Below, piece by piece: positions 28,570 to 62,985 of a DNA stretch of 64,000 nt (the first letter of the stretch is position 1; every line of letters starts with the position of its first letter). The stretch spans positions 11,298,058 to 11,362,057 of the forward strand of contig NC_091237.1 in the NCBI RefSeq assembly GCF_040958095.1, written 5' to 3'. Under the pieces are notes generated by a model. The model saw only the letters and a list, made by a program, of their open reading frames with translations, made no database searches and had not been told where the DNA came from. The stretch is from Procambarus clarkii. Taxonomy: Eukaryota; Arthropoda; Malacostraca; Decapoda; Cambaridae. The translations under genes and the position numbers were made by a program.

Positions 28570-28769
28570 TTATTCTTCCTTAGGTTTGAAGGGTGCAACA
28601 AGAGTACTCTTGACTATGCCTGTGCTCCAGATCCTGATGGACAACATAGCACCCAGGATGGAGCCAGCCCAGTACACTATAATGTGCTCGGCGTTGGTGT
28701 GGCCGCGGCAGCTCCACTTCAGCCCCGTTGCCAATACTGGGTTAAAGTATCCGCCAGAATAGTTGAAGG
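28570..28769 (-). CDS. Aquaporin coding exon 4 (NPV pore box and C-terminus)
   Basis: Acceptor TTTTATTTCAG at 28770. Encodes FNYSGGYFNPVLATGLKW, CRGHTNAEHIIVYWAGSILG and ends SIRIWSTG...KPKEE-stop at 28572-28570. The lysine-rich end resembles retention-type tails of intracellular aquaporins, but no firm KKXX is present. Confidence 0.93.
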
Positions 28770-31042
28770 CTGAAATAAAACATTTAAGTTAAACTAGATT
28801 CCTCAAGTCGTTTCCAAGGAATAATTATGGAATCAAAGTGACTATTGGAATTAACATGTGACTTTATTAAAGTGTTACGAATGACTATGGTTAAATTTAA
28901 AAAAAACATGTAGAGCATTATAAAAGTTAACCTGTTAACACTTTTATGTACGTACTGTATTATCATTCCATTAAAACTACCACTGACAGGTATTTCAAGA
29001 TTTGCTTTTTAATACTATACTGTACATTAAATTACTGTACAAGTTATCATGTAAACATTTGCATTGTACAGAAGAAAAATGTTTTTACTGTTATGAATCG
29101 AAGTGATATTAGCAACTGTTACACCCAACACTTTAAAATAATAGCATCGACTACATTTCAGTCTATCCAGGACTATTTTCAAGGCTACTTGATAATGGTC
29201 CAGGACAGACTGAAACTTAATCAATTCTTTTATTTTCAGATATTTGGGTTGGGGGTTTTAATTTTCAGCCACATTATTGTAACTTATTGTCTGCTTACTA
29301 GTAACTATATTCAGAAAAGGGTAAGGGAGGGGGGGGGGGGTGAGGCAGAATAGTCAAGAGACCAAGAGTAATGAGGTCAGGGGAGGAGGCCTAACTGAAC
29401 TAAGTGACACTGAAGTGGGCTACCCTTCACCGGTCCATCTAATTACCCAAAGCTACCCAAATCTACTCAAAGCTACCCAAAGCTGCCTAGCATTACATAC
29501 GTAATGAAGAAATATGATATATTTACTCACTATAATGTTGGTGCTGAATGTAAAACTTGAAAAAACATATTTTTACTCTGAAATAATGTCTAATTTCATT
29601 ATAAAATCATATTATTAGATGAAACGATATTATTTCAGAGTAAAAATATGTTTTTTCGTGTTGTACATTGAGCACCAACATTATACTGAGTACATATATC
29701 ATAGTTCTTTATTATTTACATATTGCTAGGAAGCTTTGGGTAACTTTGGGTAATTAGATGAACCCAACTTTCACTACACAGAGCACTCACCCAGCACGAC
29801 CATGGAGGTGGAGAAAAAGGAGTCAATAGCCGAAGCAAATCTGGGTTCAATCTCGCCAAGGGCCCTGGAGACGATGCGGCAGGCGCAGGTCAGGAGGCAT
29901 TCAATTAGGAAACCGAAGATGACAGGCACCTGCAGATCAGCACTACAGTCATCGACCCCTCGGCCTATATGGGTCTGTGCCAGCTCCATCATCCAGATGT
30001 ACTTCACCCATCTGCAACGTATGTACTTTGACAGTAATATAGTATATAGATCTACTTCACCCACCTGCAATGCATTTATCCTGATAAAGTAATATGATAT
30101 ATTCCATGCTAGTCATATCTCGAAAATTACAAGACTGGGTAACTATGTTTTATCAACATTGAGATACTAATAAAAAAAGGTTAATACATTATTGCACTTG
30201 ATTATTGCTTTCATAAATATGGCTAAGTGTTAAATGTATACAATTAAATGATTTAGTTTGTAAATATTTTAAAAAGTTATAACATATCTGAAATTGAAGG
30301 AAGAAAAAAAGAAAGAGTGCTCATATGGTGAGGGAGGTAAAGAGGAGTGAGGAAGAGTAGTCAGAGGAAATGGAAAGTTTAGAATGAGAGAAAATGAGAT
30401 CAAGGAGGAAAGTAGAAGAGTAGAAAGTAAGAGTGCTGGAATAGTAGGAAGATAGAAGGTTGCTGTCACCATCCATTCAAGTTAGTTATTTATAAGACAA
30501 GGAATGGAACTTGTCTGCACAACAATATGATCTGATGTTAACACGTATTACTTGTAAGCATGTGCAATTCATATAACCAAGATTTTTTAGGTCAAAATTT
30601 TAAGCCAGTAAACTTCAGAGTGCTCTCCATTCTAGCTTTCAAAATCCAAGACCTAGGGATCACAATTAGTGGCAATTTAAAAAGCAAGTTAATCAATTAT
30701 ATATTTGCCATTGTATATTCACTCATATGGGTATCATAATTCAACCATATCACCTGATATTCAAATGTCAAGATTAATACAGTCTCCGTGGTGTAGTGGT
30801 AAGACACTCGCCTGGCGTTCCGCGAGCGCTATGTCATGGGTTCGTATCCTGGCCGGGGAGGATTTACTGGGCGCAATTCCTTAACTGTAGCCTCTGTTTA
30901 ACGCAACAGTAAAATGTGTACTTGGATGAAAAAACGATTCTTCGCGGCAGGGGATCGTATTCCAGGGACCTTAGGATTAAGGACTTGCCCGAAACGCTAC
31001 GCGTACTAGTGGCTGTACAAGAATGTAGCAACTCTTGTATAT

Positions 31043-34000: not shown

Positions 34001-37000
34001 ATAAACCAGGACTTCACAGAAATAAACTGGGAAGAACAGCTAGAAAATGCAAACCTGAACCAGTGCCTGGAAAAAATAAGCTCAGTAGCACTAGAAATAT
34101 GTTCAAACCGCATACCTCTAAGTAAAATGAGGAAGAGATGCAGATTGGAACGGGAACGTCGTTCCCAATATAGGCGAAGAAAACGAATTGCGGAACAACT
34201 TGAGAGTCGCACCCTATCTCAAGAACGGTGAAGACGGTTAGGTAGAGAAATAGAAACAATTGGACGGAAGCTACAAGAATCATACAAAACCCAGGAGAGG
34301 CAAAGAGAGCAAAAGGCCATCAGTGAAATAGAAAGAAATCCGAAATATTTTTTCTCCTATGCAAAATCAAGATAAAAAAACCACATCTAGTATCGGGCCC
34401 CTGCGAAAGGGAGATGGAACTTTCACCAATGACAACAAAGAAATGAGCGAGCTACTGAGGATGCAGTACGACTCTGTTTTCAGCGAGCCATTAAACACAC
34501 TAAAGATTGATAATCCAAATGAATTTTTCATGGATACGATACCAACATCAAATCATATATCAGACGTCACCCTATCCCCACTGGATTTTGAAGAAGCCAT
34601 AAACAGTATGCCTATGCACTCTGCACCAGGCCCGGATTCTTGGAACTCCATATTCATAAAGAACTGTAAAAAACCACTATCGCAGGCCCTCCACATTCTG
34701 TGGAGACAAAGCCTAGATACTGGCGTTATTCCTGATATACTAAAAACAGCAGAGATAGCACCACTTCATAAAGGAGGAAATAAGGCAGAGGCAAAAAATT
34801 ACAGACCGATAGCACTAACATCGCACATCATAAAAATTTTTGAGAGAGTGCTAGGAAGTAAGATCACAAAATACATGGAATCACAGCAACTCCATAACCC
34901 CGGACAACATGGTTTCAGAACAGGGCGCTCTTGCCTGTCGCAGTTGCTGGACCACTATGATATGGCATTAGATGCTATGGAAGACAAACAAAACGCTGAT
35001 GTAATTTACACAGATTTCGCAAAAGCTTTTGATAAATGTGACCATGGTGTTATTGCACATAAAATGCGTTCAAAAGGAATTACCGGAAAAATAGGCAGAT
35101 GGATCTACAATTTCCTGACCAACAGAACCCAATGTGTAATTGTCAACAAAATAAAATCCAGCCCATCAACCGTGAAGAGCTCAGTCCCCCAGGGTACTGT
35201 GCTTGCTCCAGTACTTTTTCTCATCCTCATATCGGACATAGACAAGAACACAACCTATAGCACTGTATCATCCTTTGCAGATGACACTAGGATCTACATG
35301 AGAGTAGGCAACATAGAGGACACGGCGAACCTCCAGTCAGATGTAGATCAGGTCTTTCTATGGGCTACAGAAAATAATATGGTGTTTAACGAAGATAAGT
35401 TCCAGCTCATGCGCTATGGAAAAAATGAAAATATAAAAACGGAAACCACGTACAAAACTCAGGCAAATCATAACATAGAACGAAAAGGCAATGTAAAGGA
35501 TCTGGGTGTACTCATGTCGGAAGACCTTACCTTTAAAGAACACAATAAAGTAGCCGTCACAACTGCAAGAAAAATGACAGGTTGGATAACAAGAACTTTT
35601 CACACTAGAGATGCTATACCGATGATGATACTTTTCAAAACGCTTGTGCTCTCTAGAGTGGAGTACTGCTGCACAATGACAGCACCTTTCAAAGCTGGAG
35701 AAATTGCTGACCTGGAGAGCGTGCAGAGATCCTTTACTGCTAGAATCCACTCAGTAAAACATCTAAACTATTGGGACCGACTAAAGAGCCTAAAACTGTA
35801 CTCCCTTGAGCGCAGGCGGGAGAGGTACATAATAATTTACACGTGGAAAATATTAGAGGGGCTGGTCCCAAACCTGCACAAAGAAATAACATCACATGAG
35901 ACCAGAAGACATGGCAGGATGTGCAGAATACCCCCGTTGAAAAACAGAGGTGCAACTGGTACTCTGAGAGAGAACTCTATCAACATCAGAGGTCCGAGAC
36001 TGTTTAACACGCTTCCACTACACATAAGGGGCATAACTGGCCGACCCCTCACAGTGTTCAAGAGAGAACTGGATAAGCACCTTCAAAGGATACCTGATCA
36101 ACCAGGCTGTGACTCATACGTCAGGCTGCGAGCAGCCGCGTCCAACAGCCTGGTTGATCAGTCCGGCAACCAGGAGGCCTGGTCGACGACCGGGCCGCGG
36201 GGACGCTAAGCCCCGGAAGCACCTCAAGGTAACCTCAAGGTAAGGTAGCAGTCAGAAGAGCTAACCAAACTCTTGGGATAATCAAGCATACTTTTGACTA
36301 TAAGGAAAAGAAGGTAATGGTTCAACTGTATAAATTTCTGGTGTGCCCACATTTGGATTACTGTATCCAAGCATGGAGATGTCATTTTCAGAAGCTAATA
36401 ACTGCTCTGGAGGTGCAACACCAGGCAACAAAAGTCATTCCAGAGCCAAGTCTTCTCTCGTATCAGGAACACTTGAAGGCCAAAGGGCTAATAACACTGC
36501 AAACCAGGCATGACAGGGCAGATCTCATCGAAACTTAAAATATGAACAGGTTAGAGGATGTTAATCAGGATATTGTCTTCAGATGGTCAGATGTAACACA
36601 AACAAGGAGCAACAGTTTCAAGCTCAACAAGCCACAATGTAGGACTGAGAACAAGAGATGCTTTTTCACCTATAGGGTTATTAACCCATGGAACTTCCTA
36701 CCCGCCGAAGCCATAACTGCCAAAACTGTGTTGCGTTTTAAAATATTTCTGTAAAAGATCATCAAAGCAAATGGGGGGGGGGGACCTTTGACAAGCCGCC
36801 GGCTTCCTGTCCTCGTCGATGCCACTGGGTTAATGGCCCTCGGGTAAATCAGGTGAAAAAAATTCAATATTTTAAAAGTTTCAATGAGATCTCCGTCATG
36901 CCTGGTTTGCAGTGTTGTCAGCCCTGTGGCCTTCAAGCGTTCTAATAAGAGGAACTTTGATAGCACACCAGCAGTCACACAGACAGGACACATCACAGAC

Positions 37001-40000
37001 CCAAGCATTTATGGTCCAGGGCACACCTGCACCATGCTGCACTTGGTCAATGTTTGCCTTTGAGAGGACCTCGTTCTCACTACAGCCGAGATCTTAGAAA
37101 AGGTCTCTACCATCGGAAATGTCTCCCTGGCTGACATCCTGGAGACCATAGAAGGTGTTCACCTGCTCTTCTACAGCGACATGAACTTCGAGAAGCTATT
37201 CGCCGCCTCCAACACGACCACCCTGCTAGACGCCGACCTCGCCCTCAGTCCTCCATAACACTACCTGGCAGACAGGACTGTTTGCCAGATATATCAGCGC
37301 ATGGATCTCCGACCGTAGCATCGACAACATTTTCGGCAGCATCAATGTTGCAGATCCTTCCACCGACGCTGCCTACTCTGCAATGACCCCACACACTGCA
37401 GTCTCACCTGACTGTCTCCACCAACAGGAGGAAATAAAAGAGATGACAGCAAACACTACCTCAACCTCATCTCAGCCAGCCAACCCGCTAGGTCTTTCCC
37501 GGCCTTGCCTGGGAAATCTTTATCAATCATCTGCAGTCCTGCTCTTGGATTGGATTGGCACGTCCATGGATCCCATCTCCAGATCTCCAGTATCAGCTAC
37601 AGATAATGGCCCCAAAGAGCCTCCACTTACAGGCTCATCATAACCCATGCTACTTGGAACTTTTTGTTCCGAGTAGCTGAATTAAAAAACAAACAACAAC
37701 AACAACATGCCCGGGAATATGCCCGGGGAAGCTGCTGCTACCTCACCACCGCCTGGTCCCACGCCTCCGCAGCCCTCACTACCACCAACAAAGCCTGCAG
37801 TTACCACTACCAACACCCTGCTACCAGTACCTCTACACCTCGCCGACAAATTAGCAGGCAACGACGTCAACCTATGCATCCACACCAACAACCGGCTGCT
37901 CACTGCAAATGAACTACCGACGATGATGGTACCAGGTGACCTTCCAGCTCCTCCAGTCACTGCCGGCCCCACAAACAGTCTAGTAACAGGGACACCACCC
38001 ACCCTGGCTGCCCCGGCCAACGAAGACATCACATCAGAAGACGACGACGGACCACCCAAAACACCCACAACTGACACCAGGAGACTCTCCAGAGCCACCA
38101 CCGACGTCAACGAGAATGGCCTTGCGAACGAAGATGAGGACGAAGACACAGTCCCTGCTATGTTCCCTTCATTCCGCCCTGCGAACTACACTGATCTCAC
38201 TATATTGAAGAAAGAGTACTGCAGCCCAGAATTCCACCTCAAATTTCCAGATGGACAAATGAAATTCCTATTAAAGGACGAAGATCCTGGTGGTACAGAA
38301 TTACCGAGGTTGTTCTGTTCAGATATAAAGGGTCACTTTGCACATTAAACTGCAACCTGGTGACCAAGTGTCCTGCAGGACAAACTGCGAGCGACCATGA
38401 AGACCCCGTCCAGAAAACAGATCTCCAGTATCAGCTATTGGTACTGGTAATGGCTCCAAAGAGCCTCCACTTACAGGCTATTCATGCCCGTGCCACCTCT
38501 TGGGTGGCTTAACAGTTAATCAGTCAAAATTCGTATAGTGATTCAGTACAAACACTTTAGATATACCACACATCTTAAACATTCACCAGCAACAGTGTAC
38601 CACTCGAGGAGTCCAGTTCCTTCTCTCTCAAGAGGCTACAGTCTCGACATGGATCAGACAGCCAGATTCTGGCCACATCGAACCTCCACACACTCGTTCC
38701 GCACCGGAGAGCACCACGCTCAACACACTCACCCCGCATCCGATCTCTCTATCCAGCCCGTCGTCCTAAGGTTTCCCAACGTCAAGAATACAGTTAAATT
38801 AAAGTGTCCTCTCCTAACCTACCAGAAGACCCAAAACAAAAAACGGGACAGTGCGTCACATTTGTGAGCCGCTTCCATTTTCTAGTATGACAATTTTTGG
38901 CCTTATGTAACACCTGCCAGCGAAATGCGACGTTCTTTGTGAGAGAACAGGTTAGTCTATTCCCGGCCTCGCTCAGCTGCCATGATCCAGGCTTCGTCTC
39001 CAATACTATGACACTTCACTACATTGCCATCAAACTGACTGCTGTAACCAAGTCTATACTAATATACAAAAACTACTAAACTCCAAATACAAATCATAAA
39101 TAAATATTTGTGACTAATCATCCAAATACGTACACGTAAACGTACATTACACATTTTTTTCGATATTAGAGCATTTGCCAGTCTTGTGACCATTTGTGGA
39201 GTTCATGTAGGTAAGGCTTCATTATCCTTTTCATTTGAAAAAATCCTCAGGATAAATGGGGGACTATTGACAAACCGCTGACTTCCCGTCCAAGCGTCCT
39301 GTGGGCCTTAAACTGCGAGCGACCATGAAGAACTCGTCCATCCACAGATCTTCAGTATCAGCTAAGGGTATGGGTAATGTACCAATAGCTTCACCAATGT
39401 TACACTATACTGTACTCAATTTATGCCCCACGAAATTCACTCTGGCACATGCCTAACATTACTAACATTTTCAAAAACCATATATAACTCAATTTATCGG
39501 ACAGGAAAACTGTCATCTTCATACAAAAGAATAGAACTCAGAGTCCCATATATTACACATGATTACATAGTTCAGTGGCACCAACAGCACTCACCTGAAT
39601 GATGCTAAGCCGCCTATGACTTGAGCGATGATCTTGAGGACGACGTGTAGAGGGTTGGATCCCACTTCGACGTACTCCTCAAGGAGGGAGTAGGGGCAGG
39701 CGGTGGCGGTTCCCCATGACTGGCCCCACCATATGGTCATAAGGAAGAGGTAGACGGCATAGGCATACACTCCGTAGTTGTCCGCCACTGTGGAAATAAC
39801 CTCACTTTACTCTAGTATTCTGCATATTGTTGTTTTAGGTTCAGCTACTCAGCTGTCATTCCCTGTCCAACAGCCTGGTTGGCCAGTCCAGTGATGAGGA
39901 GGCCTGGTCGAGGACCGGGCCATGAGGACTCAAAGCCCCCCAAACCATCTCAAGGTAACCTCGGAACAAAAAGTAACACGTAGCACGGACTATGGTGAGC

Positions 40001-43000: not shown

Positions 43001-46000
43001 CACAGGCTCCGGCAAGGAGTCCAGTAGGTGTTTAAGATCGAGAAGAGAAAGCGGAACATTTGGGGGGAGGTAAATGGAACAAACCGTGTACCATTTACAC
43101 ACAATTACACATGCAGCAGAACATTGGAGATGCGACGGAAAAAGTAGGGGGACAAAGGGAACATCAGAACGAATCAAGAGAGCAGAAGAGGAACGGGCCC
43201 CAGCAAAAGCCGGGGGGAAAGGGGGGGGGGTAACAGAAAGGAATAGCCACGGAAGCGATCAAAACGAGCACCAAGCATCGGCTCCTGGAGACAGACACAA
43301 AGGGGCGAAAACTGTGAAATCAGAAGTTGGAGTTCAAGGAAATTGGCGTAAGATCCAAGAATATTCCATTGAAGAATAGACATCGACAAAAAGAGAAAGG
43401 ACAGCAACAGAGGATAACGAAGAAACAAAGGTGAAAAAGGAACACAGCACGTTAAAGAAGCGCAGGTTCAGGGTCAGCGAAGTCAGGGTTAGGGGACATG
43501 GGTAAACTGAGTAAGGATGGAGGGAAGGGAGCGGGAGTACCGACAAGAGGCGGACGAACAGGGTCTGGAGGAGGAGGGGGGGGGGGACAACCGAGGGTCA
43601 AGGACAGCAGCAGGAGGGGCACAAACCAGGGAGTGCACCTAAGCAAGGGCAGCAACCGAGAGGGAAGCGGGGGGCCAAAGAAATCTCCATAGCAGGAACA
43701 GAGGGTGCAACCACCGAAACGGGAGGGGATGTAGCAAGAGAGTCAGAGGTAGAGGGTGAGGAAGAAAGCGAAGCCTTCTTACCCACCGGGGTGGAGGAAG
43801 GAGATGAGCCAGGCTTTCGCCTCCGACTCAAAGAGACAAGCGTCCCAGCAACAATGTACTGGGCAACAGATTCGAGCATCTCAACAGTCGAAGCAAAAGG
43901 TGAGCAAACAACACGATGGCCGCTGGGAGAGTGATGGACATCAGCCCACGCAGACAGGCGGCATAGAGAGCTAAGAGATGGAGGAGGATTGGAGGGAGAC
44001 GAGGAAGAAGACAAGGAGACAAGACAGACTGGGTAAAAAGAAGGGGAACACCCCAGACAGAGAACCATGAGGGGGACCCTTCGAGACAGAACTCAAAGGA
44101 ACAGAGAAGGCGATGGTGGGTGTGTCTGGGTCTAAGGCCTGGAAACGGTTGTGAGACTGAGGAAGCTGGGAAGGACGAGGAGAAGAAGAGCGCAACATAC
44201 GAACATAAGAGACACCAGCGAAAGGGGTGGGACGGCGAACTTGGCGCCTCGCCCCAGGAAAAGACAAACGTTCCCTGTGCTTCAAGGTGAGGACAGCTGC
44301 CTCAAGTTTGTAATTACACACGTGGGAGAAGATACAACCCGTTCTCGCAAATTTAATAAGTCAATATTGACTTATTAAATATGTGCATAGGTGACATACT
44401 TAACATAATAGTTTCCCTTGAAAAGCTTCATAGAAAACCCCGACCTTACCTAACCTACTTAGTATGTTAAGATAGGCATCTTATTGCTTCGTAATTACAA
44501 TTACTACCTAACCTATACCTATAATAGGTTAAGTAACAATTGTAATTACGAAGCTATAAGATGCTTATTTTAACATACTAAGTAGGTTAGGTAAGGTCGG
44601 TGTTTTCTATGAAGCTTTTCAAGGGAAACTATTATGTTTAGTATGTCACCTATGCACGCAACTAATAAGTCAATATTGACTTATTAAATTTGCGAGAACG
44701 GGTTGGAAGATAGGGTGGGCCTCATTGCAATTGAGGCAACGAGCCCGGGGAGAAGTGCACTCCGACTTAGTGACTTTCGTTCCCACACAAGGGACATAGA
44801 GAAACAGTACTGGAGCATCAGAGGGCACCATGCCCAAACCTTCAGCACTTATTACAGAGCCGAGGAGAAGGAATGTACTCCTGGACGGAGCACCTGGCAC
44901 CAGCAAGAATGACAGAGGGCGAAAGGGTCCTACTATCAAAGGTAATCTTCACAACCCGAAGGGGCTGACAGCGACAACCACGAGGGGGACGAATAAACGT
45001 GTCTACCTGGAGGACAGAATGTCTGGGCTTCGAGGATATGCCAAATATTTTCGTGACAGTCCTGAAGATTCCTAACACCGGTTGCAACATGGGGTGGGAA
45101 GAGAACAGTGCCAACACTAGCATTCAACGCTCAGAACGTCTCCGAGCGTTCTTGGAGACCCGAACAGGGGTTTCGCCAAGGCAGGATAAGGTGGCCAAGC
45201 GGGTGGCTGCATCCTGAGAAGGAGCAGCAACGACACTTGTACCAAGACAGGTGGGGTTGAAAATAACAGAGGCATCTACTGAATCAACAAGGTGTCTATG
45301 GAGGGAGAAATCGTCAGGAGGTGTAGAATCCAGAGGGAGGAGATCAAAGTATTTGGCCCACGAAGTGGGACCAAACAAGGCTTGGTACGCATCAGTATGG
45401 GAAGGGGTCGAGCGAGGGCGGCCGAGGCGTGGACAGCGTTGAGAACTCCCAGAGAGGGGTTAAAAGGCGCAGTAGTCACAATGAGAGACCGAGCCGTGCC
45501 AGGGGACGAAGTGGTCCCCACTGAGGGCTTGTGGCTCAACCCAACCACAGAGGGAGGGAGGGAGGGAGGGAGGGGAACCGAGGGGAGTAGTCAGGAGAGT
45601 CAAAGAAGGAGGAAGGTCGGGGCCCAAAGAAGCAGAACAGAGCCAAGTCTTCCAACACAGTCCGACTCGGGGGGCTTGGTCGCCCACCCCCATGAGCCCG
45701 AGAAGGTACAAGAGGAACAGAATGAGAGGAACAAACGTTCATTCACGAATGAGCCCCCACACCCACCACGGAGCCACAATTAGAGGCAGGACACCCAACA
45801 AGAGACATGTTGCCAATCTTGCCGGAACCCCGCAGGGGTGCGTCGTGAGTATACGCCCCCATAAACGCCACCTTAAGAACCGTCAGTCCGCGAGATCGGG
45901 TTCAGTGACGAAAGGAGGATTGACAATAAAAGCGTCCCCTCACTCGCGACGTCGGGTACCACAGTTCTACGGGTGCAAGAGTATGCCTCCTCAAACACCC

Positions 46001-46799
46001 GGGCGTCAAAACAAAAGAAGGCTGTAAGAATAATCAAAACAGGCAAAAGGTTGGTGGGAAATGTCAATTAGAAAGGAGAAGAGGGGATGAGGGGGAGAAA
46101 AACGAAACACAAGGAAAAGAAAAAGTCGCCCGGCAGAATTCGAGAGGAGAGCAGCAGGAGCATAAGAACACTAAAGGACAGAGGACTGTCCCATGGAGCA
46201 TCACACTCCGGCAGCCGCCCACCAAGCCCCCTCATGGCAGCAACCGGCCAGACAGGTAGGGGGAAAGTATCTTAAATTAACGTGTGCAGAAAAGAAACTT
46301 CCTATATTGAATTACATTCTGTGTTCATTAGACTTGCTTCTCTGTACACAGACATCTTTGTGTCATTATTATAATTTCTATAATTATGAGGACGAGGCGA
46401 GCACCACACCCTCCAACACTCCCTCATGACGAGGACGAGGCGGGCACCACACCCCCAACACTCCCTCATGACGAGGACGAGGCGGGCACCACACCCCCAA
46501 CACTCCCTCATGACGAGGACGAGGCGGGCACCACACCCCCAACACTCCCTCATGACGAGGACGAGGCGAGCACCACACCCCCAACACTCCCTCATGACGA
46601 GGACGAGGCGAGCACCACACCCCCAACACTCACCAATGATCAGTTCGAAGCAGGTGCCGCACATCTCCGCCGCGGCGACAAGCTCAAGAAGGCAGCCCTT
46701 GATCATTTCGTTCTGGATCATGTCGCTCAAGCGGCCGCGGATGACGTGCGACAACGCCATCTGCGTCGCGATGGTTAACGACGACACCACGATCGACAT
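28570..46799 (-). CDS. Unorthodox aquaporin (AQP11/12-like), spliced, four coding exons
   Basis: Joining 46799-46634, 39787-39595, 30011-29791 and 28769-28570 gives 780 nt, 259 residues plus TAA, with intact phase at every junction (1, 2, 1). The product is a small hydrophobic channel protein with several predicted membrane spans (for example residues 1-20, 34-56 and 61-80). The first pore box is CPY (residues 86-88) in place of NPA, the pattern of the AQP12-like branch. The second is NPV (203-205). Conserved family stretches include ADLQVPV, FNYSGGYFNP and YWAGSILGA. Members usually sit in intracellular membranes and pass water or small solutes; that is family knowledge. Length fits the family (about 250-290). 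The in-frame TAA eight codons before the ATG supports this start. Introns are 6.8, 9.6 and 1.0 kb and packed with mobile elements. Non-coding 5' exons are not located. Confidence 0.93.
29433..29764. mobile_element. Foldback/MITE-like element in aquaporin intron 3
   Basis: Long inverted repeat of about 160 bp per arm. The outer ends are ccatctaattacccaaagc and its counterpart gggtaattagatg. Inner parts such as aaaaaacatatttttactctgaaataat are mirrored by attatttcagagtaaaaatatgttttttc. Identity between arms is about 85 percent by eye. No open frame. It ends about 25 bp from the exon 3 donor. Confidence 0.88.
29791..30011 (-). CDS. Aquaporin coding exon 3
   Basis: Acceptor GTTGCAG at 30012 and donor CTGG|GTGAGT at 29790. 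Encodes RWVKYIWMMELAQTHIG, CSADLQVPVIFGFLIE and SRALGEIEPRFASAIDSFF. The EP-acidic and ADLQVPV blocks are characteristic of the AQP11/12 branch. A foldback element ends only about 25 bp beyond the donor site. Confidence 0.93.
30782..31086 (+). mobile_element. tRNA-derived SINE (type 1) with poly(A) tail, in intron 2
   Basis: The head gtctccgtggtgtagtggtaa carries an A box, and catgggttcgtatcctgg a B box, followed by an acceptor-like ccggggagg. The body leads into a core, ggacttgcccgaaacgctacg...actagtggctgtacaagaatgta, and a run of about 38 A residues (31049-31086). Not a functional tRNA gene: there is an extra body, no clean cloverleaf end, and related cores occur elsewhere (32118, 24407). 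Confidence 0.88.
31087..32117. other. Unassigned intronic stretch
   Basis: Part of aquaporin intron 2. No gene or element recognised. A purine-rich patch (gagaggggaaggagggggga) lies at 31234-31257. Confidence 0.5.
32118..32260 (+). mobile_element. SINE core with (TAAA)n tail
   Basis: gattaagggcctgcccgaaacc...gtgttagtggcttt parallels the core of the SINE at 30782, but the downstream part (cacacacctatgtacc..ttgtataaataaataaat) ends in TAAA repeats and not poly(A). Two SINE families thus share the core module. Confidence 0.75.
32450..32838 (-). mobile_element. LINE-A C-terminal fragment, inverted
   Basis: On the minus strand, from 32838 down, it reads DVDSDIFFRRSDVTQTRSN, NKPQCWTENRRCFF and HRVINPWNCLPSKVV, then a 3' UTR (ggggaacctttaagaagtc, ccggcttcctgtcctc). 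The same blocks appear on the plus strand at 36540-36850. A 51-bp LINE-R scrap interrupts its UTR (listed next). Confidence 0.85.
32500..32550 (-). mobile_element. 51-bp LINE-R 3' end insertion with 15-bp target duplication
   Basis: tgagcgagtaattatcaaaa...ggctatgtagca is the extreme 3' end of LINE-R (compare 6860-6910). It is flanked by GACGAGGACAGGAAG (32485-32499) and GATGAGGACAGGAAG (32551-32565), one mismatch in 15. This is a retrotransposition event that copied only about 50 nt of template. Confidence 0.85.
32839..33766 (+). mobile_element. LINE-A, 5' part of a copy split by LINE-B
   Basis: RT sequence of a CR1/L2-type LINE reads GVDGIQSEVLKKLAEKLCL, RQHGFVKNRSCLTNLL, VDVVYMDFAKAFDKVPHE (motif A) and SGEMPQGSF (motif B), with frameshifts. 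It continues through VGHNNPCHDYQINSITL to 33766. The next codons of the same protein reappear at 36245. The FADD motif C region is degraded (tttgcagaggtcacaaag at 33486). Confidence 0.85.
32849..33730 (+). pseudogene. LINE-A RT (fingers and palm), multiply frameshifted
   Basis: The open pieces 32849-33184, 33109-33423 and 33516-33734 overlap in different frames and together cover RT from the fingers to beyond motif C. A deleted base after MPQGS near 33420 and indels near 33020 and 33100 break it. It is homologous to the LINE-B RT at 34359-36209 but clearly a separate family. Confidence 0.83.
33770..34358 (+). pseudogene. LINE-B endonuclease C-terminus and linker
   Basis: NTLDLIFTNIDELIRN and CYSDHNLIEVMT (the SDHNLI catalytic His block of APE-type endonucleases) are followed by a basic linker (RRKRIAEQ). 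An in-frame TGA at 34229-34231, then a frameshift in the A-run at 34373-34380, separate it from the RT frame. The N-terminal endonuclease is missing through truncation. Confidence 0.83.
34359..36209 (+). CDS. LINE-B reverse transcriptase, 616-codon intact frame
   Basis: A retrotransposon polymerase of CR1/L2 type. Order seen: RPIALTSHIIKIFERVLG (fingers), HGFRTGRSCLSQLL, DVIYTDFAKAFDKCDHG (motif A Asp), SSVPQGTVLAPVLF (motif B), SSFADDTRIYM (motif C, FADD), then thumb blocks KDLGVLMSEDLTFKEH and NYWDRLKSLKLYSLERR, and a C-terminal NIRGPRLFNTLP. All catalytic residues are present, so this frame could encode enzymatically plausible RT. The element as a whole is 5'-truncated and cannot be autonomous. 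The ATG at 34359 results from a frameshift and is not the native start. Longest open frame in the window. Confidence 0.92.
   Translation: MQNQDKKTTSSIGPLRKGDGTFTNDNKEMSELLRMQYDSVFSEPLNTLKIDNPNEFFMDTIPTSNHISDVTLSPLDFEEAINSMPMHSAPGPDSWNSIFIKNCKKPLSQALHILWRQSLDTGVIPDILKTAEIAPLHKGGNKAEAKNYRPIALTSHIIKIFERVLGSKITKYMESQQLHNPGQHGFRTGRSCLSQLLDHYDMALDAMEDKQNADVIYTDFAKAFDKCDHGVIAHKMRSKGITGKIGRWIYNFLTNRTQCVIVNKIKSSPSTVKSSVPQGTVLAPVLFLILISDIDKNTTYSTVSSFADDTRIYMRVGNIEDTANLQSDVDQVFLWATENNMVFNEDKFQLMRYGKNENIKTETTYKTQANHNIERKGNVKDLGVLMSEDLTFKEHNKVAVTTARKMTGWITRTFHTRDAIPMMILFKTLVLSRVEYCCTMTAPFKAGEIADLESVQRSFTARIHSVKHLNYWDRLKSLKLYSLERRRERYIIIYTWKILEGLVPNLHKEITSHETRRHGRMCRIPPLKNRGATGTLRENSINIRGPRLFNTLPLHIRGITGRPLTVFKRELDKHLQRIPDQPGCDSYVRLRAAASNSLVDQSGNQEAWSTTGPRGR
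36245..36860 (+). mobile_element. LINE-A, 3' part of the copy split by LINE-B
   Basis: Resumes at VAVRRANQTLGIIKHTFDYKE, then PHLDYCIQAWRCHFQK, HLKAKGLITLQTRHDRADLI, DVNQDIVFRWSDVTQTRSN and YRVINPWNFLPAEAIT, and then the UTR with gggggggggacctttgacaag and ccactgggttaatggccctcgggtaaatca. One stop interrupts near 36538. Confidence 0.87.
36866..36960 (-). mobile_element. Short inverted LINE-A fragment
   Basis: The minus strand reads LLLERLKATGLTTLQTRHDG and DLIETFKILN, the same block as 36470-36540 on the plus strand. It lies tail-to-tail with the larger LINE-A copy. Confidence 0.75.
37060..37640 (+). pseudogene. Unrecognised decayed coding segment (possible retroelement ORF1)
   Basis: An open stretch reads VLTTAEILEKVSTIGNVSLA, DILETIEGVHLLFYSDMNFE and LFAASNTTTLLDADLALSPP to a stop at about 37256. 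After shifts a second piece reads YISAWISDRSIDNIFGS. Codon-like character and frame decay suggest a former protein. I do not recognise the family; retrotransposon ORF1 is a guess from its position among LINEs. Confidence 0.4.
37643..37706 (+). repeat. Hairpin-tailed dispersed repeat, copy 1
   Basis: ccatgctacttggaactttttgttccgagtagctga contains the stem gctacttggaac/gttccgagtagc and is followed by an (AAC)n tract. Further copies are at 39962-40032 (inverted) and 63195-63290. Confidence 0.75.
37707..38348 (+). CDS. Unrecognised 213-codon proline/threonine-rich open frame
   Basis: Starts MPGNMPGEAAATSPPPGPTP directly after an (AAC)n tract. It has a Pro/Thr-rich, low-complexity N-terminal half, an acidic stretch (NEDEDEDTVP) near residue 145, and a more ordered C-terminus (ANYTDLTILKKEYCSPEFHL, MKFLLKDEDPGGTELPRLF). 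No family recognised. It lies on the plus strand inside intron 2 of the aquaporin gene and beside LINEs and short repeats, so a retroelement ORF1 fragment is the likeliest origin; a host exon is less likely. Confidence 0.35.
   Translation: MPGNMPGEAAATSPPPGPTPPQPSLPPTKPAVTTTNTLLPVPLHLADKLAGNDVNLCIHTNNRLLTANELPTMMVPGDLPAPPVTAGPTNSLVTGTPPTLAAPANEDITSEDDDGPPKTPTTDTRRLSRATTDVNENGLANEDEDEDTVPAMFPSFRPANYTDLTILKKEYCSPEFHLKFPDGQMKFLLKDEDPGGTELPRLFCSDIKGHFAH
38355..38520 (+). repeat. Dispersed repeat ending in catgcccgtgccacctcttgggtgg
   Basis: Contains gtgtcctgcaggac, aaactgcgagcgaccatgaag, agatctccagtatcagct, gagcctccacttacaggct and catgcccgtgccacc. Parts of the same series occur at 37560-37640 (agatctccagtatcagct...cttacaggctcat) and 39285-39375 (aaactgcgagcgaccatgaag...agatcttcagtatcagct), so this is an interspersed family, probably SINE-like. 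Confidence 0.7.
38521..38756. other. Unassigned intronic stretch
   Basis: An open frame of 109 codons runs across it but ends in the dispersed repeat that follows. Nothing is recognised. Confidence 0.4.
38757..38965 (+). repeat. Conserved ~205-bp dispersed repeat, copy 1
   Basis: cagcccgtcgtcctaaggtttcccaacgtcaa...gcttccattttctagta(t/c)gacaatttttggcc...gaaatgcgacgttctttgtg is repeated with about 85 percent identity at 51293-51500, same strand. No coding potential, no tRNA head, no terminal inverted repeat visible. Confidence 0.82.
38966..39594. other. Intronic stretch with scraps of repeats
   Basis: Aquaporin intron 2. Contains a 40-bp LINE-A 3' scrap at about 39252-39292 (ggggactattgacaaaccgctgacttcc) and a piece of the dispersed repeat at 39285-39375. 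The remainder is unremarkable. Confidence 0.5.
39595..39787 (-). CDS. Aquaporin coding exon 2 (CPY pore box)
   Basis: Acceptor TTTCCACAG at 39788 and donor CAG|GTGAGT at 39594. Encodes ADNYGVYAYAVYLFLMTIWW, then WGTATACPYSLLEEYVEV with the CPY box, and IIAQVIGGLASF. The 193-nt exon starts in phase 1 and ends after two nt of an Arg codon completed by exon 3. Confidence 0.93.
39866..39964 (+). mobile_element. LINE-B-type 3' end fragment
   Basis: ccaacagcctggttggccagtcc...gaggcctggtcgaggaccgggcc...atctcaaggtaacctc matches the LINE-B 3' terminus at 36143-36240. It may be the tail of a truncated LINE or of a SINE using the same tail. It lies about 80 bp from the exon 2 acceptor, in intron 1. Confidence 0.78.
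39962..40032 (-). repeat. Hairpin-tailed dispersed repeat, copy 2 (inverted)
   Basis: Reverse complement reads gccaggtaagtccactatgggctcaccatag..cgtgctacgtgttactttttgttccg, matching 63212-63262. It begins where the LINE-B tail fragment ends. Confidence 0.72.
40033..40254. other. Unassigned intronic stretch
   Basis: AT-rich; nothing recognised. Confidence 0.5.
40290..41690 (-). pseudogene. LINE-R ORF2 thumb, RNase H and tail (copy 4)
   Basis: From 41690 the minus strand reads REQIGTLSSL, then SKLDYGCPAYSSASHPTLRR and LHHTGLRLSSGAFRSTPALS. After a break near 41220 it reads MCRLPPETSIFIAELYAILY (RNase H Glu), VVVDSCSALMALGS (Asp) and, further on, SRKGIPYFDFYPV. Several frameshifts; no capacity for function. 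Confidence 0.82.
41988..42488 (+). pseudogene. LINE-D RT C-terminal domain
   Basis: One open frame reads HIKLHLYRMIIRPSLEYPYV, NMLKIQRVQNKALRFAEG, LSYLARRQLYRMKNMYVPD and ends PDDPDEWPIPDPIYTK-stop at 42486-42488. YRMIIRPSLEYP and IQRVQNKALR are typical of jockey-type LINE thumbs. The catalytic region is absent through 5' truncation. An A-rich tract follows the stop. Confidence 0.8.
41988..42874 (+). mobile_element. LINE-D 3' fragment inserted into LINE-R
   Basis: Comparison with the uninterrupted copy at 8480-8560 shows foreign DNA between gggctcactgg and gagtccaaatgagttgg. The insert starts in an RT C-terminus and ends in a 3' UTR with ttcctgaatttcatctcc. Target-site duplication is ambiguous because the left flank is diverged. 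Confidence 0.78.
43598..45548 (-). pseudogene. LINE-R ORF1 with CCHC knuckles (copy 4), frameshifted and interrupted
   Basis: Blocks SWAKYFDLLPLDSTPPDD, GTSVVAAPSQDAATRLATL, NASVGTVLFPPHVATGVRNL and VLQVDTFIRPPRGC precede CNKC and the knuckle-like KSECTSPRARCLNCNEAHP (about 44760). The foldback at 44335-44705 sits just after this, and the frame resumes with YKLEAAVLTLKHRERLSF and a Ser/Pro-rich tail. Frameshifts abound. Confidence 0.8.
44335..44705. mobile_element. Foldback element (371 bp) with 7-bp target duplication
   Basis: Almost the whole element is one inverted repeat. It starts CAACCCGTTCTCGCAAATTT and ends with the reverse complement. Arms include aataagtcaatattgactta, ttcccttgaaaagcttcata and cttacctaacctacttagtatg. 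GAAGATA flanks both sides (44328-44334 and 44706-44712). The empty site is visible in the paralogous LINE-R at about 9944-9960 (gggagaaggtaggatggg). No coding capacity, so it must be mobilised in trans. Confidence 0.93.
45549..46387. other. LINE-R flank and unassigned intron 1 sequence
   Basis: Begins with a (GGGA)n microsatellite (about 45553-45575). Open frames here show no family resemblance. Some of it may be LINE-R 5' UTR, but the two long copies do not match in this part. Confidence 0.5.
46388..46632 (-). repeat. 42-bp minisatellite starting at the exon 1 splice donor
   Basis: Six units (minus strand) of the form GAGTGTTGGGGGTGTGGTGC followed by (t/c)cgcctcgtcctcgtcatgagg. The first unit overlaps the true donor (G|GTGAGTGTTGGGG). 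The following units replace GGTGAGTG by GAGGGAGTG, so the repeats are copies of the intron start lacking a usable GT. Units are nearly identical apart from C/T at one site. Confidence 0.93.
46634..46799 (-). CDS. Aquaporin coding exon 1 (residues 1-55 and 1 nt)
   Basis: Encodes MSIVVSSLTIATQMALSHVI followed by RGRLSDMIQ and the second hydrophobic span (KGCLLELVAAAEMCGT...). The donor is ATTG|GTGAGT at 46633. Immediately upstream, ..CCTCCACAG|AAC precedes ATG, so this is probably an internal exon with its acceptor at 46804-46803 and the start codon three nt inside. Both flanks are tandem repeats. Confidence 0.92.
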
Positions 46800-46800
46800 G

Positions 46801-47220
46801 TTCTGTGGAGGACACGGGCGTTAGATCATGTTCTGTGGAGGACACGGGCGTTAGATCATGTTCTGTGGAGGACACGGGCGTTAGATCATGTTCTGTGGAG
46901 GACACGGGCGTTAGATCATGTTCTGTGGAGGACACGGGCGTTAGATCATGTTCTGTGGAGGACACGGGCGTTAGATCATGTTCTGTGGAGGACACGGGCG
47001 TTAGATCATGTTCTGTGGAGGACACGGGCGTTAGATCATGTTCTGTGGAGGACACGGGCGTTAGATCATGTTCTGTGGAGGACACGGGTGTTAGATCATG
47101 TTCTGTGGAGGACACGGGTGTTAGATCATGTTCTGTGGAGGACACGGGCGTTAGATCATGTTCTGTGGAGGACACGGGCGTTAGATCATGTTCTGTGGAG
47201 GACACGGGCGTTAGATCATG
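46801..47220 (-). repeat. 30-bp x 14 minisatellite made of 3' splice-site units
   Basis: Exactly 420 bp, fourteen units (two carry a single C-to-T change, at 47071-47130). On the minus strand each unit reads CATGATCTAACGCCCG then TGTCCTCCACAGAA: a branch-point-like CTAAC, a short pyrimidine stretch, an AG acceptor and, at the start of the next unit, an ATG. The last unit abuts the aquaporin start codon. Confidence 0.97.
46803..46824 (-). promoter_or_regulatory. Predicted 3' splice site of aquaporin exon 1
   Basis: CTAACGCCC, GTGTCCTCC, ACAG|AACATG: a branch point about 20 nt from the AG and the start codon 3 nt inside the exon. An in-frame TAA upstream of ATG rules out simple N-terminal extension. 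Which of the 14 equivalent acceptors is used cannot be told from sequence; the proximal one is assumed. Confidence 0.6.
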
Positions 47221-49039
47221 TTATTAAATATTCAGTGTGTATGTGGTGAGAATTTTCAAGATTAACATTAAAATAAATTCTATAAAAAATGTATTATATA
47301 TCTAAACAGTAAACACTCAACAGTATCCAAATAACCTTAAAATTGTATTTTCACAAATTCTCACATGCATACGGGAAACCCGTTTTTGGTGTGAATATAC
47401 ATTAATAAATATTCAATGCATGATGTACCTTGTTTTTACTATTTAGGTTAAATTATGGTAATGATAATACTTGGTGTTATAATGCTCGTTTAAGCATAGT
47501 TAGAACTGTATATGTAATGGTATGCGAGCTACTATACTACAGTCGGTAATACCCATCCCCATGTGGGTACACACACACACACACGGGCGGGATCCAAGAG
47601 TCAATGCTCGATCCTGCAGACACTAATAGGTCAGTACACACACACAAAGCACATCACCAACATCTCAAACCATACAAACAATTGCATCAAACCAAGTAAG
47701 CTGAAATGTGTTCAATGATGAACACAAGTTATTAAATATATGCCTATCCTAATGTAGCAATGACATCATTAAATATGCCTATCCGGTCACGACACTAATT
47801 ACTTGACTCGTGTGCACCATTGCAACTTAAACAAACCTAATATAATTAAAAAATATAATTCAAGCTAGAAGCTGTATTTAATAATGCTAACCTTGAGTTA
47901 ATTTCATAATTTATATTGTAACAGAAACCTTGTATTTATGTAGCCTGTAGTTTAGTTTGTACAAGTGATTTATTGGTCTCCTGTAATTACAGATAATTAG
48001 CTTTGGGTGCATACATAAGCACTGAAGTTTTCTACATAAAGATACACAATTTAGGAACTGTACGAGCAAGAGGTAAGGAAAGTACGCAAGAAACAGAGCG
48101 TTGTTCATGATGGTGCAAGAGACGATACATACATTACATAAGGGTGAGAGATAAGCTATACAATAGAGTGCTATACAGGTGCAGGAAGAACACGAGCTAT
48201 GCTAGAGGCAGTACAGAGGTGCAGAGCAGTGTGCTGTGAGGAGTGTCTCGCCGCACTGTTGTGGTTTGCTCGTTGTGAGTGCAAGTACTCTGACTTGTGT
48301 GTCGGTCCGGAGGGAGGTACAAGTATGACTTGTAAGGTGGAGTACACACACACAATGAAGGTTTTAGCTACACAAATTAGTACATTTCGTCACCCACAAC
48401 ACACAAATACAAGCAACGATTTCGAGGTCTTCAGACCGGTTCGTCCACGAAGTCTCTGAAGGAATGGCTGAACGAACTTGTGGATACAGATGCAACTTGA
48501 TCTATGAACGTGAAAAAACACAAATTTATAAACTGCTCCATCAATATTTTGGCCAATTTGGTTCCCGAATACACGAATTCTCGTCCAAGTGTTTTATATG
48601 TTTTATCTCGACTATACATAAACGTCACAAAGTCAAGAGAAGTTACGGAGAAGCACTAAGAGGGTCATTAATTTGGATTACTTTTGATTTAAGCTTTCTG
48701 TAAATCTGTGGGTGTGAGTGTATGAGGTACAGAAGGTAACCGCTGCAGGCTTGCGTGAGTGCTGGAATAGTTACCTTCCTGGAAGCCTTGGAGACAGAGC
48801 AAGAGACTGTCTTCTAACACGCCATAAAGGACCGACAGGATGATTTAGCTTCATATTATATTTCCATATTAGGGGATTGTGTGTGGGTGTTGAGGTGTGT
48901 GTGGTGAGCGTTAAGGTGTGTAACTGGTATAGAGAAACAACAGCTGTATGAAGAGACTACTGATGTTTGAACATCAGTAGGTAAGAGAGAGAGAGAAGGG
49001 AAATGAGGAGAGGAGGGCAAGAGGCACCAAGAGAGGTGT
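47221..49039. other. Upstream region of the aquaporin, noncoding
   Basis: AT-rich to 48.1 kb. Beyond 48.2 kb the sequence is less AT-rich, with no coherent frame. It may contain the 5' non-coding exon, which cannot be located by eye. Confidence 0.45.
47551..47647 (+). repeat. CA-microsatellite-bearing dispersed repeat
   Basis: ccatccccatgtgggta(ca)n then cgggcgggatcc, tcgatcctgcagacac and aataggtcagtac. The module aatgctcgatcctgcagacacnaatagg resembles decapod SINE parts; the related module gcaagcacaactaggtaagtac is at 55239-55260. Confidence 0.55.
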
Positions 49040-60636: not shown

Positions 60637-60948
60637 ACCTCACACTTCAGTGTATTATTGCTCGCCAAAATTATAATTGTTTAAAAGCCTATTCTTTGTC
60701 AAACTTATCAGTTCTCTCACACACTCCGAGGCCAACATGAGACAGAATCCGCATCATGAATGTGTTGTTGTGGTGCCAAACATCCAACACAAGAATGTTA
60801 CAATTGTGTCTTAACGTATGTAACGCAATTAAGGATAATAAGTTATAATTTAAAAGTTACATGTCAATTTTAGGTGCGTACACATAAGTGCAAGGAGTAT
60901 GGCAGACCGGACCGTCGTTAATGGTAGAAGCCTAGTTCTTTGTATGGC
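60637..60948. other. Unassigned stretch
   Basis: Nothing recognised. Confidence 0.4.
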
Positions 60949-61150
60949 AACACCTGCAGGCTGGTGTACCTGTACCTCAGGCAACACCTGCAGGCTGGTG
61001 TACCTGCAACACCTGCAGGCTGGTGTACCTGCAACACCTGCAGGCTGGTGTACCTGTACCTCAGGCAACACCTGCAGGCTGGTGTACCTGTACCTCAGGC
61101 AACACCTGCAGGCTGGTGTACCTACACCTCCAGCAACACTTGCAGGCTGC
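60949..61150. repeat. 27/34-bp minisatellite (acctgcaggctggtgtacct) fused to the Penelope element
   Basis: Six good units and one diverged unit of acctgcaggctggtgtacct with linkers gcaac or gtacctcaggcaac. The plus-strand frame is open through the whole array into the Penelope RT. Confidence 0.93.
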
Positions 61151-61165
61151 TATACGTCATTCTTA

Positions 61166-62985
61166 AAAAAGACGAATATCTGGCGAAAATGAACCTCATA
61201 CTCTCTGACCAAACTAAATTCCAAAGGGTAATGAAGGACACTACAGCCGAATTGAAAGCAAAGGTAAACAGATTGATCGAAACTGTGAAGGCCAAAAAAT
61301 CCGGACTCCACCTGCCAAAGGTTATTGGGGAATACAAACCTGGGTATGCGTATGGAAATGTCAAGACCTACAAGCCAGGAAACCCACTTCGGCCAATCAT
61401 CAGCCAGATACCCACACCCACGTACAGACTGGCGAAGCGACTCAACGGCTTGCTGACTCCTTATGTCCCTTGTGCTTTCAGCCTGAAGTTTCCAAAGGAA
61501 TTTGTTGACTTACTGCGAGGAACACGGACCACAGGGATAAGAGCCTCGTTGGACGTAGAATCACTGTTTACCAACGTACCTGTGGATGAAACAATCGGGA
61601 AGATAGCGGACAGAGTGTATCGTGATCCGGCCTGTACTCCTCTTGACATACCAGAAAACATTCTAAGGAAACTACTCCAAGCTTGTACTAAAGAGGCACC
61701 CTTCTTGAGCCCAGATGGGCACATGTATAAGCAAGTAGATGGGGTCGCCATGGGTTCTCCCCTAGGTGTCCTGTTTGCGAACTTCTACATGGGCACCATC
61801 GAACAGAAGGTCTTAGTTGACATGGACTTGAAATCGGCCATATACTGCAGGTATGTTGATGACATTTTTACACAGATACCTGATGTCCGATGTCTGCAGG
61901 AGCTAAAGGAGGCATTCGAGCGAAATTCTGTGTTGAGTTTCACTTACGACATGGAGAAGGATGGGAAGCTGCCCTTTCTTGATGTAACAGTCACGGAAAG
62001 GAGCGGAGGTTTCTACACTGCAGTCTACACTAAGGAAACATAGGAATGTGCCTCAATGCCAATAGTGACTGCCCAAACAGGTACAAGAGAAGTGTTGTCA
62101 ATGCTTACGTCGACCGTGCTCTCAGTCACAGCTCAGGATGGAAGCAAGTCGATGAAGAACTCTGTAGGTTAAGGCAGGTCCTAGTCAACAACGGCTTCTC
62201 TAATGGTTTTGTTGAAGACATCATAAGAAGAAAGGTAAAACGCCATGCAACCACTGAAGAGTCAACTAACACAACACATGTAACCCTATTAGACTATTTT
62301 ACAGGAACGTCTTCTCGACAGCTCATAAAACGGAGGAAAGGGTCCTGAAAAATATTGTTGATAGGAACGTTATCCCTACAGACAAAAAACAGAAAATACT
62401 ATTGACGATTTACTATAAAACAAAAAAAACGGCCAACCTACTCATGAAAAACTCTCCAGACACAAAGCAGAACGCCTTGAAAGAGACCAAAGTCGTCTAT
62501 GCCTTCAAATGCCCACTTGGGGAATGTAAGCCCCAAAGAACTCAGTATATAGGCAAGACAACAACGTCTCTTTCCAGGCGATTAACAATGCATCAGCAAC
62601 AGGGCTTCATTAAGGAAACAAGACTCGCGTCCCTATCAAAACGAAAAAGACCACTACTTTTTTACTGTCGATGGTAATGGAAAAATCAATTCTCCAACAT
62701 TCATTTGTATTTCTAGTCTGACTGTTATTTTTTTTATGTCTAGTCTATTTCTAGTCATTAAGGAACAAATAATCTCCTCTCACAACCAGACCATCACCAG
62801 ATAAGTCTTAACAGACAATACAGAAATCATCGATAGGTACAACGATAGCAGGCGGCTCGACATCTGCGAGGAACTACACATCAAAAAGTCAACACCAGCA
62901 ATCAGCAGTCAATTAATGCACAACTATATTCTACCCACTTCAAGACTCCGTACAAATATAGAAGCATCAAGAGGAAGTATGGGCC
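61166..62985 (+). pseudogene. Penelope-like RT and GIY-YIG protein, broken
   Basis: First frame to 62043: VKTYKPGNPLRPIISQIPTP, RASLDVESLFTNVPVDET (motif A), QVDGVAMGSPLGVLFANFYM (motif B) and YCRYVDDIFTQIPD (motif C, YVDD), then KLPFLDVTVTERSGGF. A frameshift at TAG 62041 leads to YKRSVVNAYVDRALSHSSGW and FVEDIIRRKVKR. A third frame from 62402 reads TIYYKTKKTANLLMKNSPDT and VYAFKCPLGECKPQRTQYIG (GIY-YIG core). The final part after the insertion reads QIISSHNQTITR. Catalytic RT residues are intact but the polyprotein is not. Confidence 0.87.
62618..62754. mobile_element. 137-bp insertion in the GIY-YIG region with 11-bp duplication
   Basis: TCATTAAGGAA occurs at 62607-62617 and again at 62755-62765. 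Removing the insert and one copy restores a continuous reading through QQGFIKE and QIISSHNQ. The insert (acaagactcgcg... gtctatttctag) has no recognisable ends and T-rich sequence near its right side. Confidence 0.8.

What the first reader, a model, noticed from the sequence alone, without database searches (positions are those of the whole stretch)
46801..47220. A 14-fold tandem array of 3' splice sites abuts the aquaporin start codon
Each 30-bp unit on the minus strand is a complete-looking acceptor: CTAAC, pyrimidines, CACAG, followed by AACATG. The unit next to the coding exon provides its acceptor and start context; the other thirteen are equivalent copies upstream. Inclusion of any upstream copy would add mini-ORFs ATG-ATC-TAA, 30 nt apart and in the same frame as the true ATG. 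A variable-number repeat could thus tune splice-site choice and translation of a channel gene. The repeat is seen directly; the regulatory role is inference. I know of no described case with this geometry.
Basis: partly seen in the sequence, partly recalled or inferred. Interest (0 to 1): 0.87.

Follow-up and report, generated by a model that had tools for sequence, protein, structure and literature searches.

The report
Fourteen-copy splice-acceptor repeat at aquaporin exon
In a genome that is probably the red swamp crayfish's, the short signal marking the start of an aquaporin gene's first coding exon is stamped out fourteen times in a row, start codon included; it most likely grew from a single ordinary signal and may be harmless noise or a tunable splice and translation control.

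Summary
On the minus strand, fourteen 30-bp units (46801-47220; two carry the same single change) end at the first coding exon of an aquaporin-11-like gene, probably in Procambarus clarkii. Each unit has a branch-point-like CTAAC, a pyrimidine tract, CACAG and AACATG. The unit nearest the exon holds the acceptor, 3 nt before the ATG of a four-exon, 259-residue gene (89% identical to Cherax). A paralogue on the same contig has one ordinary acceptor at the same place, so the array most likely grew from a single ancestral acceptor (24 intron + 6 exon bases). Using any upstream copy would add 1 to 13 AUG-AUC-UAA mini-ORFs. Mirror-image donor repeats are known in human ABCA7 and IFI6; I recognised no acceptor minisatellite in my search listings. 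No RNA or population data were available, so regulation is unproven; low-level alternative acceptor use in a tolerated repeat is likeliest. A planned survey of exon edges failed because the search machine stayed busy.

The parts
46801..47220 (-). Acceptor minisatellite: 14 x 30-bp units, each CTAAC + pyrimidine tract + CACAG + AACATG
46803..46805 (-). CAG of the exon-proximal acceptor (unit 14)
   Evidence: reading frame and splice phase of the four exons; paralogue has its acceptor at the same place
46634..46802 (-). First coding exon of the AQP11-like gene, 169 nt; ATG at 46797-46799
46388..46631 (-). Donor-side minisatellite, 5.8 x 42 bp, beginning right after the donor GT (46632-46633); copies read TCATGAGGGAGTG where the exon edge reads TCATTGGTGAGTG, so they have no GT donor
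39595..39787 (-). AQP11-like exon 2
29791..30011 (-). AQP11-like exon 3
28570..28769 (-). AQP11-like exon 4 with stop codon

Best explanation
A minisatellite (candidate VNTR) was born by tandem amplification, in place, of the ancestral single 3' splice site of this aquaporin exon: 24 intron bases (branch point, pyrimidine tract, CAG) plus 6 exon bases (AACATG). All 14 copies keep every acceptor element. Most mature mRNA probably joins the exon at one, mainly exon-proximal, acceptor (normal 169-nt exon, no upstream AUG). Occasional use of upstream copies yields poorly translated leaders with 1-13 Met-Ile-stop ORFs. The array is tolerated because whichever acceptor is used leaves the coding sequence intact. 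Shown: array, unit anatomy, gene, single acceptor in the paralogue. Inferred: direction of change, which acceptors are used, low-level misuse, tolerance.
For: Array and anatomy. Four exons join in frame into a 259-aa protein 89% identical to Cherax AQP. Paralogue 67 kb away on the same contig, opposite strand...CACCTACAG|GACATGTCG, single acceptor exactly 3 nt before ATG, and no array at its exons. Of 24 homologues fetched, five (Cherax, Scylla, Panulirus P0008, Oratosquilla, krill P0018) have Asn just before the same Met, as AAC-ATG here. Units include the exon's own first 6 bases, as expected if the exon edge was copied. ABCA7 precedent: 25-bp VNTR starting with the exon 18 donor; retention of a single unit is rare (2%, reading the paper's two figures in the order given) and unaffected by length.
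Against: No transcript of this gene was available: the best of 261 protein hits (120 listed) is 89% identical, so expression and acceptor choice are unseen. No 5' exon was found upstream in the window (one test). The unit's core CCCGTGTCCTCC recurs in other arrays of this genome, so an origin outside this gene is not excluded. Paralogue and window acceptors share no clear sequence beyond the splice consensus and the exon. In ABCA7 the VNTR is not harmless: in one brain region the alternative isoforms together exceeded the canonical one in 90% of samples, exon 19 skipping being the commonest of them.
Confidence: 0.58

Rival explanations
1. Functional tuner: repeat number sets how often an upstream acceptor is used and hence how many Met-Ile-stop uORFs the leader carries, adjusting aquaporin output.
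For: All 14 copies keep branch point, tract, CAG and an A at -3 of the ATG; every upstream choice adds only MI* uORFs. ABCA7 shows VNTR length correlating with exon skipping and lower expression.
Against: No RNA or polymorphism data. Near-identity of copies is also what recent expansion gives without selection. Other arrays abound nearby (16 in 64 kb).
Confidence: 0.12
2. A pre-existing or dispersed minisatellite with the core CCCGTGTCCTCC, pyrimidine-rich by composition, came to lie at or replaced the acceptor, rather than the acceptor being amplified.
For: Units sharing CTRAC-(G)CCCGTGTCCTCC-n-CAG occur on C78 and C76, and 15-bp satellites CACCCGTGTCCTTCA run over thousands of bases on C8 and C12. 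Unit similarity AQP vs C78: p about 7e-6 per pair against shuffles.
Against: With roughly a million arrays in the genome (my extrapolation from the window), such a per-pair p is not beyond chance. The unit contains the gene's own AACATG exon edge.
Confidence: 0.18
3. The exon is transcribed from a start site inside or just 3' of the array; the array is promoter-proximal DNA and not a set of splice sites.
For: No 5' exon identified in the window; some decapod records start at this Met (P0004, P0007, P0014, P0015).
Against: Paralogue has a good acceptor at the same position; several malacostracan records have differing N-terminal extensions right before this Met, as upstream exons spliced there would give, though some could instead be unspliced leader read in frame.
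Confidence: 0.09
4. Assembly artefact: repeat number or position wrong.
For: Tandem arrays are prone to assembly error in general; no reads could be checked.
Against: The array lies inside a 22.3-Mb contig and has two internal variant units.
Confidence: 0.03

Closest known systems
ABCA7 intron 18 VNTR (Acta Neuropathol. 2018, PMC5954066; passages read)
   Same: Short-unit VNTR (25 bp) immediately at an exon edge, whose unit contains the splice site used by that exon; single-unit retention seen; length correlates with exon 19 skipping and lower expression
   Different: Donor, not acceptor; the start codon is not in the unit; human; effects measured there, none here
IFI6 (G1P3, 6-16) minisatellite (Turri, Cuin and Porter 1995; title and one citing sentence seen, paper not held)
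   Same: Minisatellite whose units give several splice donor sites in one transcript
   Different: Donor sites; reported from transcripts; position relative to a start codon not checked
Splice patterns arising from tandem arrays (Zhuo et al. 2007, title in a reference list only; De Grassi and Ciccarelli 2009, PMC2812944, passages read)
   Same: Internal tandem repeats at exon-intron boundaries generating splice variation
   Different: De Grassi: novel introns formed from internal repeats; here an old acceptor is repeated on the intron side
NAGNAG tandem acceptors (PMC3250501, start of abstract in the listing only)
   Same: Neighbouring competing 3' splice sites
   Different: Two sites 3 nt apart; here 14 complete acceptors 30 nt apart
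Repeated acceptors in the long internal repeat of Epstein-Barr virus (recalled; a related paper, PMC12451641, appeared in the listing and was not read)
   Same: Tandem repeat carrying splice acceptors near a translation start
   Different: Viral; units are kilobases long with whole exons (recalled)

Membership tests
Splice-site-bearing VNTR (ABCA7/IFI6 type) | Repeat unit contains the splice site of the adjacent exon | tested here: met
   unit 14 holds CACAG|AACATG at the exon edge
Splice-site-bearing VNTR (ABCA7/IFI6 type) | Other copies keep the same splice site | tested here: met
   14 of 14 units have CTAAC...CACAG; for the 42-bp donor-side array not met: 0 GTRAG in the copies
Splice-site-bearing VNTR (ABCA7/IFI6 type) | The repeated site is a donor, as in both published examples | tested here: not met
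   it is an acceptor; so filed as a variant of the kind, not as a member of the donor class
Splice-site-bearing VNTR (ABCA7/IFI6 type) | Additional copies are used in transcripts | not testable with these tools
   no RNA data
Splice-site-bearing VNTR (ABCA7/IFI6 type) | Copy number varies between individuals | not testable with these tools
   one assembly only
Aquaporin-11-like (gene identity) | Full-length similarity to annotated AQP11-like proteins | tested here: met
   89% identity, 100% coverage to Cherax P0001, E 5.6e-157; 87% to Penaeus aquaporin-11-like P0002
Aquaporin-11-like (gene identity) | Pfam MIP domain above the curated cut-off | tested here: inconclusive
   PF00230 hit 19.7 bits, below cut-off 25; of the 120 listed homologues only 5 carry a precomputed PF00230

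The most novel reading that the evidence does not exclude
Acceptor minisatellites are a recurring feature of this genome: splice acceptors with adjoining exon bases are repeatedly amplified into arrays of complete, equivalent 3' splice sites, and copy number acts as a heritable rheostat on acceptor choice and, where the start codon is in the unit, on the number of uORFs.
Probability: 0.13. Interest if true: 0.82.

Novelty: new variant of a known kind. Interest (0 to 1): 0.55.

Why it matters
If the copies are used, it is a natural 14-way competition among near-identical complete 3' splice sites in front of one exon, which would let one read off how the spliceosome chooses by position alone. 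It would also extend the known donor-VNTR mechanism (ABCA7) to acceptors and to start-codon/uORF control, and points to a minisatellite-rich crustacean genome as a place to look for more.

Tried and rejected
RNA pairing between the two arrays (exon looping or circular RNA): predicted duplex of 90 nt of the acceptor side with 126 nt of the donor side -56.5 kcal/mol, against a mean of -65.1 for arrays of shuffled units, 259 of 300 shuffles as strong or stronger; rejected. Rfam on 45500-48500 at gathering score: 0 matches. Search for the nine-residue Cherax N-terminal extension in the window upstream of the array: the best ungapped match contains a stop codon. Common descent of the AQP and C78 units: per-pair p about 7e-6, not beyond chance over an estimated million arrays; left open. 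The pattern was mis-specified by me (an extra N, so it could not match the window's own unit); its one hit with 2 mismatches says nothing. Homologues of the C78 exon peptides: Pfam one hit below cut-off, NCBIfam 0, PDB 0, two protein searches 0 at E 0.001. The planned survey of exon edges through protein families (PF00069, PF00005, PF00225) and the pattern CTRACGCCCGTGTCCTCC got no answer.

Full report
WHAT IS THERE. The finding's array is real. On the minus strand 46801-47220 holds 14 head-to-tail 30-bp units; 12 are identical and two neighbouring units share one G-to-A change. In gene orientation a unit reads CATG-AT-CTAAC-GCCCGTGTCCTCCACAG-AA. CTAAC fits the metazoan branch-point consensus (recalled), the AG is the first one after it, and AACATG is the start of the exon.

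THE GENE. The exon belongs to a four-exon gene on the minus strand: 46634-46802, 39595-39787, 29791-30011, 28570-28769, with AG before each exon, GTGAGT after the first three, and in-frame joins, encoding 259 residues. It is 89% identical over its whole length to a Cherax quadricarinatus aquaporin and 81-87% to the next five named decapod records (Penaeus, Scylla, Eriocheir, Petrolisthes, Panulirus P0008); further decapod records are lower, for example Chionoecetes 74%. The Pfam MIP hit is below the curated cut-off (19.7 against 25 bits). The genome is 4.03 Gb; contig C88 is 22,321,902 bases, the same length as the contig given for the P. clarkii aquaporin-11 record P0015, so the species is very probably Procambarus clarkii.

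DIRECTION OF CHANGE. The genome search with the Cherax protein gave 8 exon matches: four are this gene and four are a paralogue on the same contig about 67 kb away on the other strand. The paralogue's first coding exon begins ...TTTAATACCATCACCTACAG|GACATGTCGATA: one ordinary acceptor exactly 3 nt before the ATG; no array of period 12-120 and 3 or more copies lies at its exons (L026). Of the 24 homologous proteins fetched, five have Asn just before the same Met (Cherax, Scylla, Panulirus P0008, Oratosquilla, krill P0018); others have Thr, Met, Glu, Val or other residues there or begin at this Met, and the N-terminal extensions differ between species. Differing extensions are expected if different upstream exons splice to this point; some could be unspliced leader read in frame. 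A single acceptor is the likely ancestral state and the array is derived. That the unit contains the exon's own first six bases (AACATG) fits amplification of the exon edge in place.

CONSEQUENCES BY ANATOMY. Choosing acceptor 14 (exon-proximal) gives the 169-nt exon with no upstream ATG; choosing acceptors 13 to 1 gives exons of 199 to 559 nt with 1 to 13 upstream ATGs, every one opening Met-Ile-stop, in frame with the true start. The protein is not altered, only the leader. This explains why such an array can persist, and also why it could regulate; nothing here shows that it does.

THE OTHER EDGE. The exon's donor side also carries an array, 5.8 x 42 bp (46388-46631, 98% match), beginning right after the donor GT. 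The exon edge reads TCATTG|GTGAGTG and the copies TCATGAGGGAGTG; no GTRAG occurs in the copies, so they are not donors of that type. Under independent random placement of the window's 16 arrays, two array ends within 6 nt of this exon's two splice sites have Poisson probability about 8e-5, or about 1e-3 counting 7 splice sites of the gene. This is post hoc, on a finding selected for being odd.

IS IT RECURRENT? A DNA search with the array gave 42 matches in the genome (27 candidates scored; counts are lower bounds), on C88 itself and seven other contigs. I read by eye the flanks on four of those seven (C78, C76, C35, C69): one, C78, has the same layout. There, 24.2 copies of a 34-bp unit (ACTAACCCGTGTCCTCCCCCAGGAACAACATGGT in gene orientation; L018 4159-4982) end at an exon-like stretch GAACAACATGGTGCTGCCC... 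An upstream exon-like stretch ending CTCATACG|GTGAGA joins it in phase, and the joined frame has a coding-like G+C pattern by codon position (0.54, 0.41, 0.84; the aquaporin 0.50, 0.43, 0.72). Against it: no homologue in Pfam above cut-off, NCBIfam, PDB or two protein searches limited by protein length, so it is a candidate exon only. Its unit is 34 bp, so upstream acceptors would usually shift the frame there. On C76 a 24-bp array is acceptor-like by my rule, but I recognised no exon beside it; the C35 and C69 arrays are not acceptor-like by that rule. The large arrays on C8, C12 and C20 were not checked for exons.

BACKGROUND. This genome is rich in minisatellites: 16 arrays in the window, of which 1 of 16 has an acceptor-like unit. 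Five 10-kb stretches at random positions (the first five of 60 drawn, on the eight contigs already met; two came back mostly masked) held 5 arrays, 0 of 5 acceptor-like. The core CCCGTGTCCTCC is shared by several arrays and, as CCCGTGTCCTTC, by very long 15-bp satellites; against shuffles the AQP-C78 unit similarity has p about 7e-6, which over a genome-wide number of arrays (about a million by extrapolation, rough) is not decisive.

WHAT IS KNOWN. The closest published case read here is the ABCA7 intron 18 VNTR: 25-bp units, the first two bases being the exon 18 donor. Single-unit retention was rare (2%, reading the paper's two figures in the order given) and did not change with repeat length, whereas exon 19 skipping rose with length, ABCA7 expression fell, and in one brain region alternative isoforms together exceeded the canonical one in 90% of samples (PMC5954066 passages). 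IFI6 has a minisatellite giving multiple splice donors (Turri 1995, cited in the two papers; the paper itself is not held). My searches for an acceptor counterpart were 4 papers; 25 of 30 listed; 20 of 128 listed; 0 papers; 1 paper; I recognised none in the listings. From recall, a long viral repeat (Epstein-Barr virus) does carry repeated acceptors with kilobase units; a related paper was listed and not read. Most subscription papers are outside the library.

VERDICT. The thing is real, its gene context is right, and it is a mirror-image variant of a known kind. The likeliest account is a tolerated repeat grown from a single acceptor; a regulatory role is possible and directly testable.

Noticed in passing
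window 46388-46631: 42-bp minisatellite at the donor of the same exon, open in the coding frame (14-residue repeats), so missed splicing would extend the protein with repeats instead of stopping at once.
   Followed up: partly
L018 4159-4982 (contig C78): Second acceptor-array layout, 34 bp x 24.2, before a coding-like exon with no recognised homologue.
   Followed up: partly
protein search: The best record for this gene is 89% identical (Cherax); no near-identical record is listed although P. clarkii's paralogue is. The Homarus record P0020 lacks exon 1. The exon with its flanking arrays may be hard to annotate.
   Followed up: no
window 2777-4613: Array built of an 18-mer inverted repeat TACCTATTCAAATAGGTA (8-base arms, CA centre) in higher-order units of 108-326 bp.
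   Followed up: no
loci L021-L023, L027, L028: 15-bp satellites CACCCGTGTCCTTCA running over thousands of bases on contigs C8 and C12, sharing most of the core of the acceptor unit.
   Followed up: no
window 34332-36209, 60928-62043, 21962-23258: Open frames that look like a non-LTR retrotransposon reverse transcriptase, a Penelope-like element and a pogo/Tigger-like transposase (recognised from memory, not tested).
   Followed up: no
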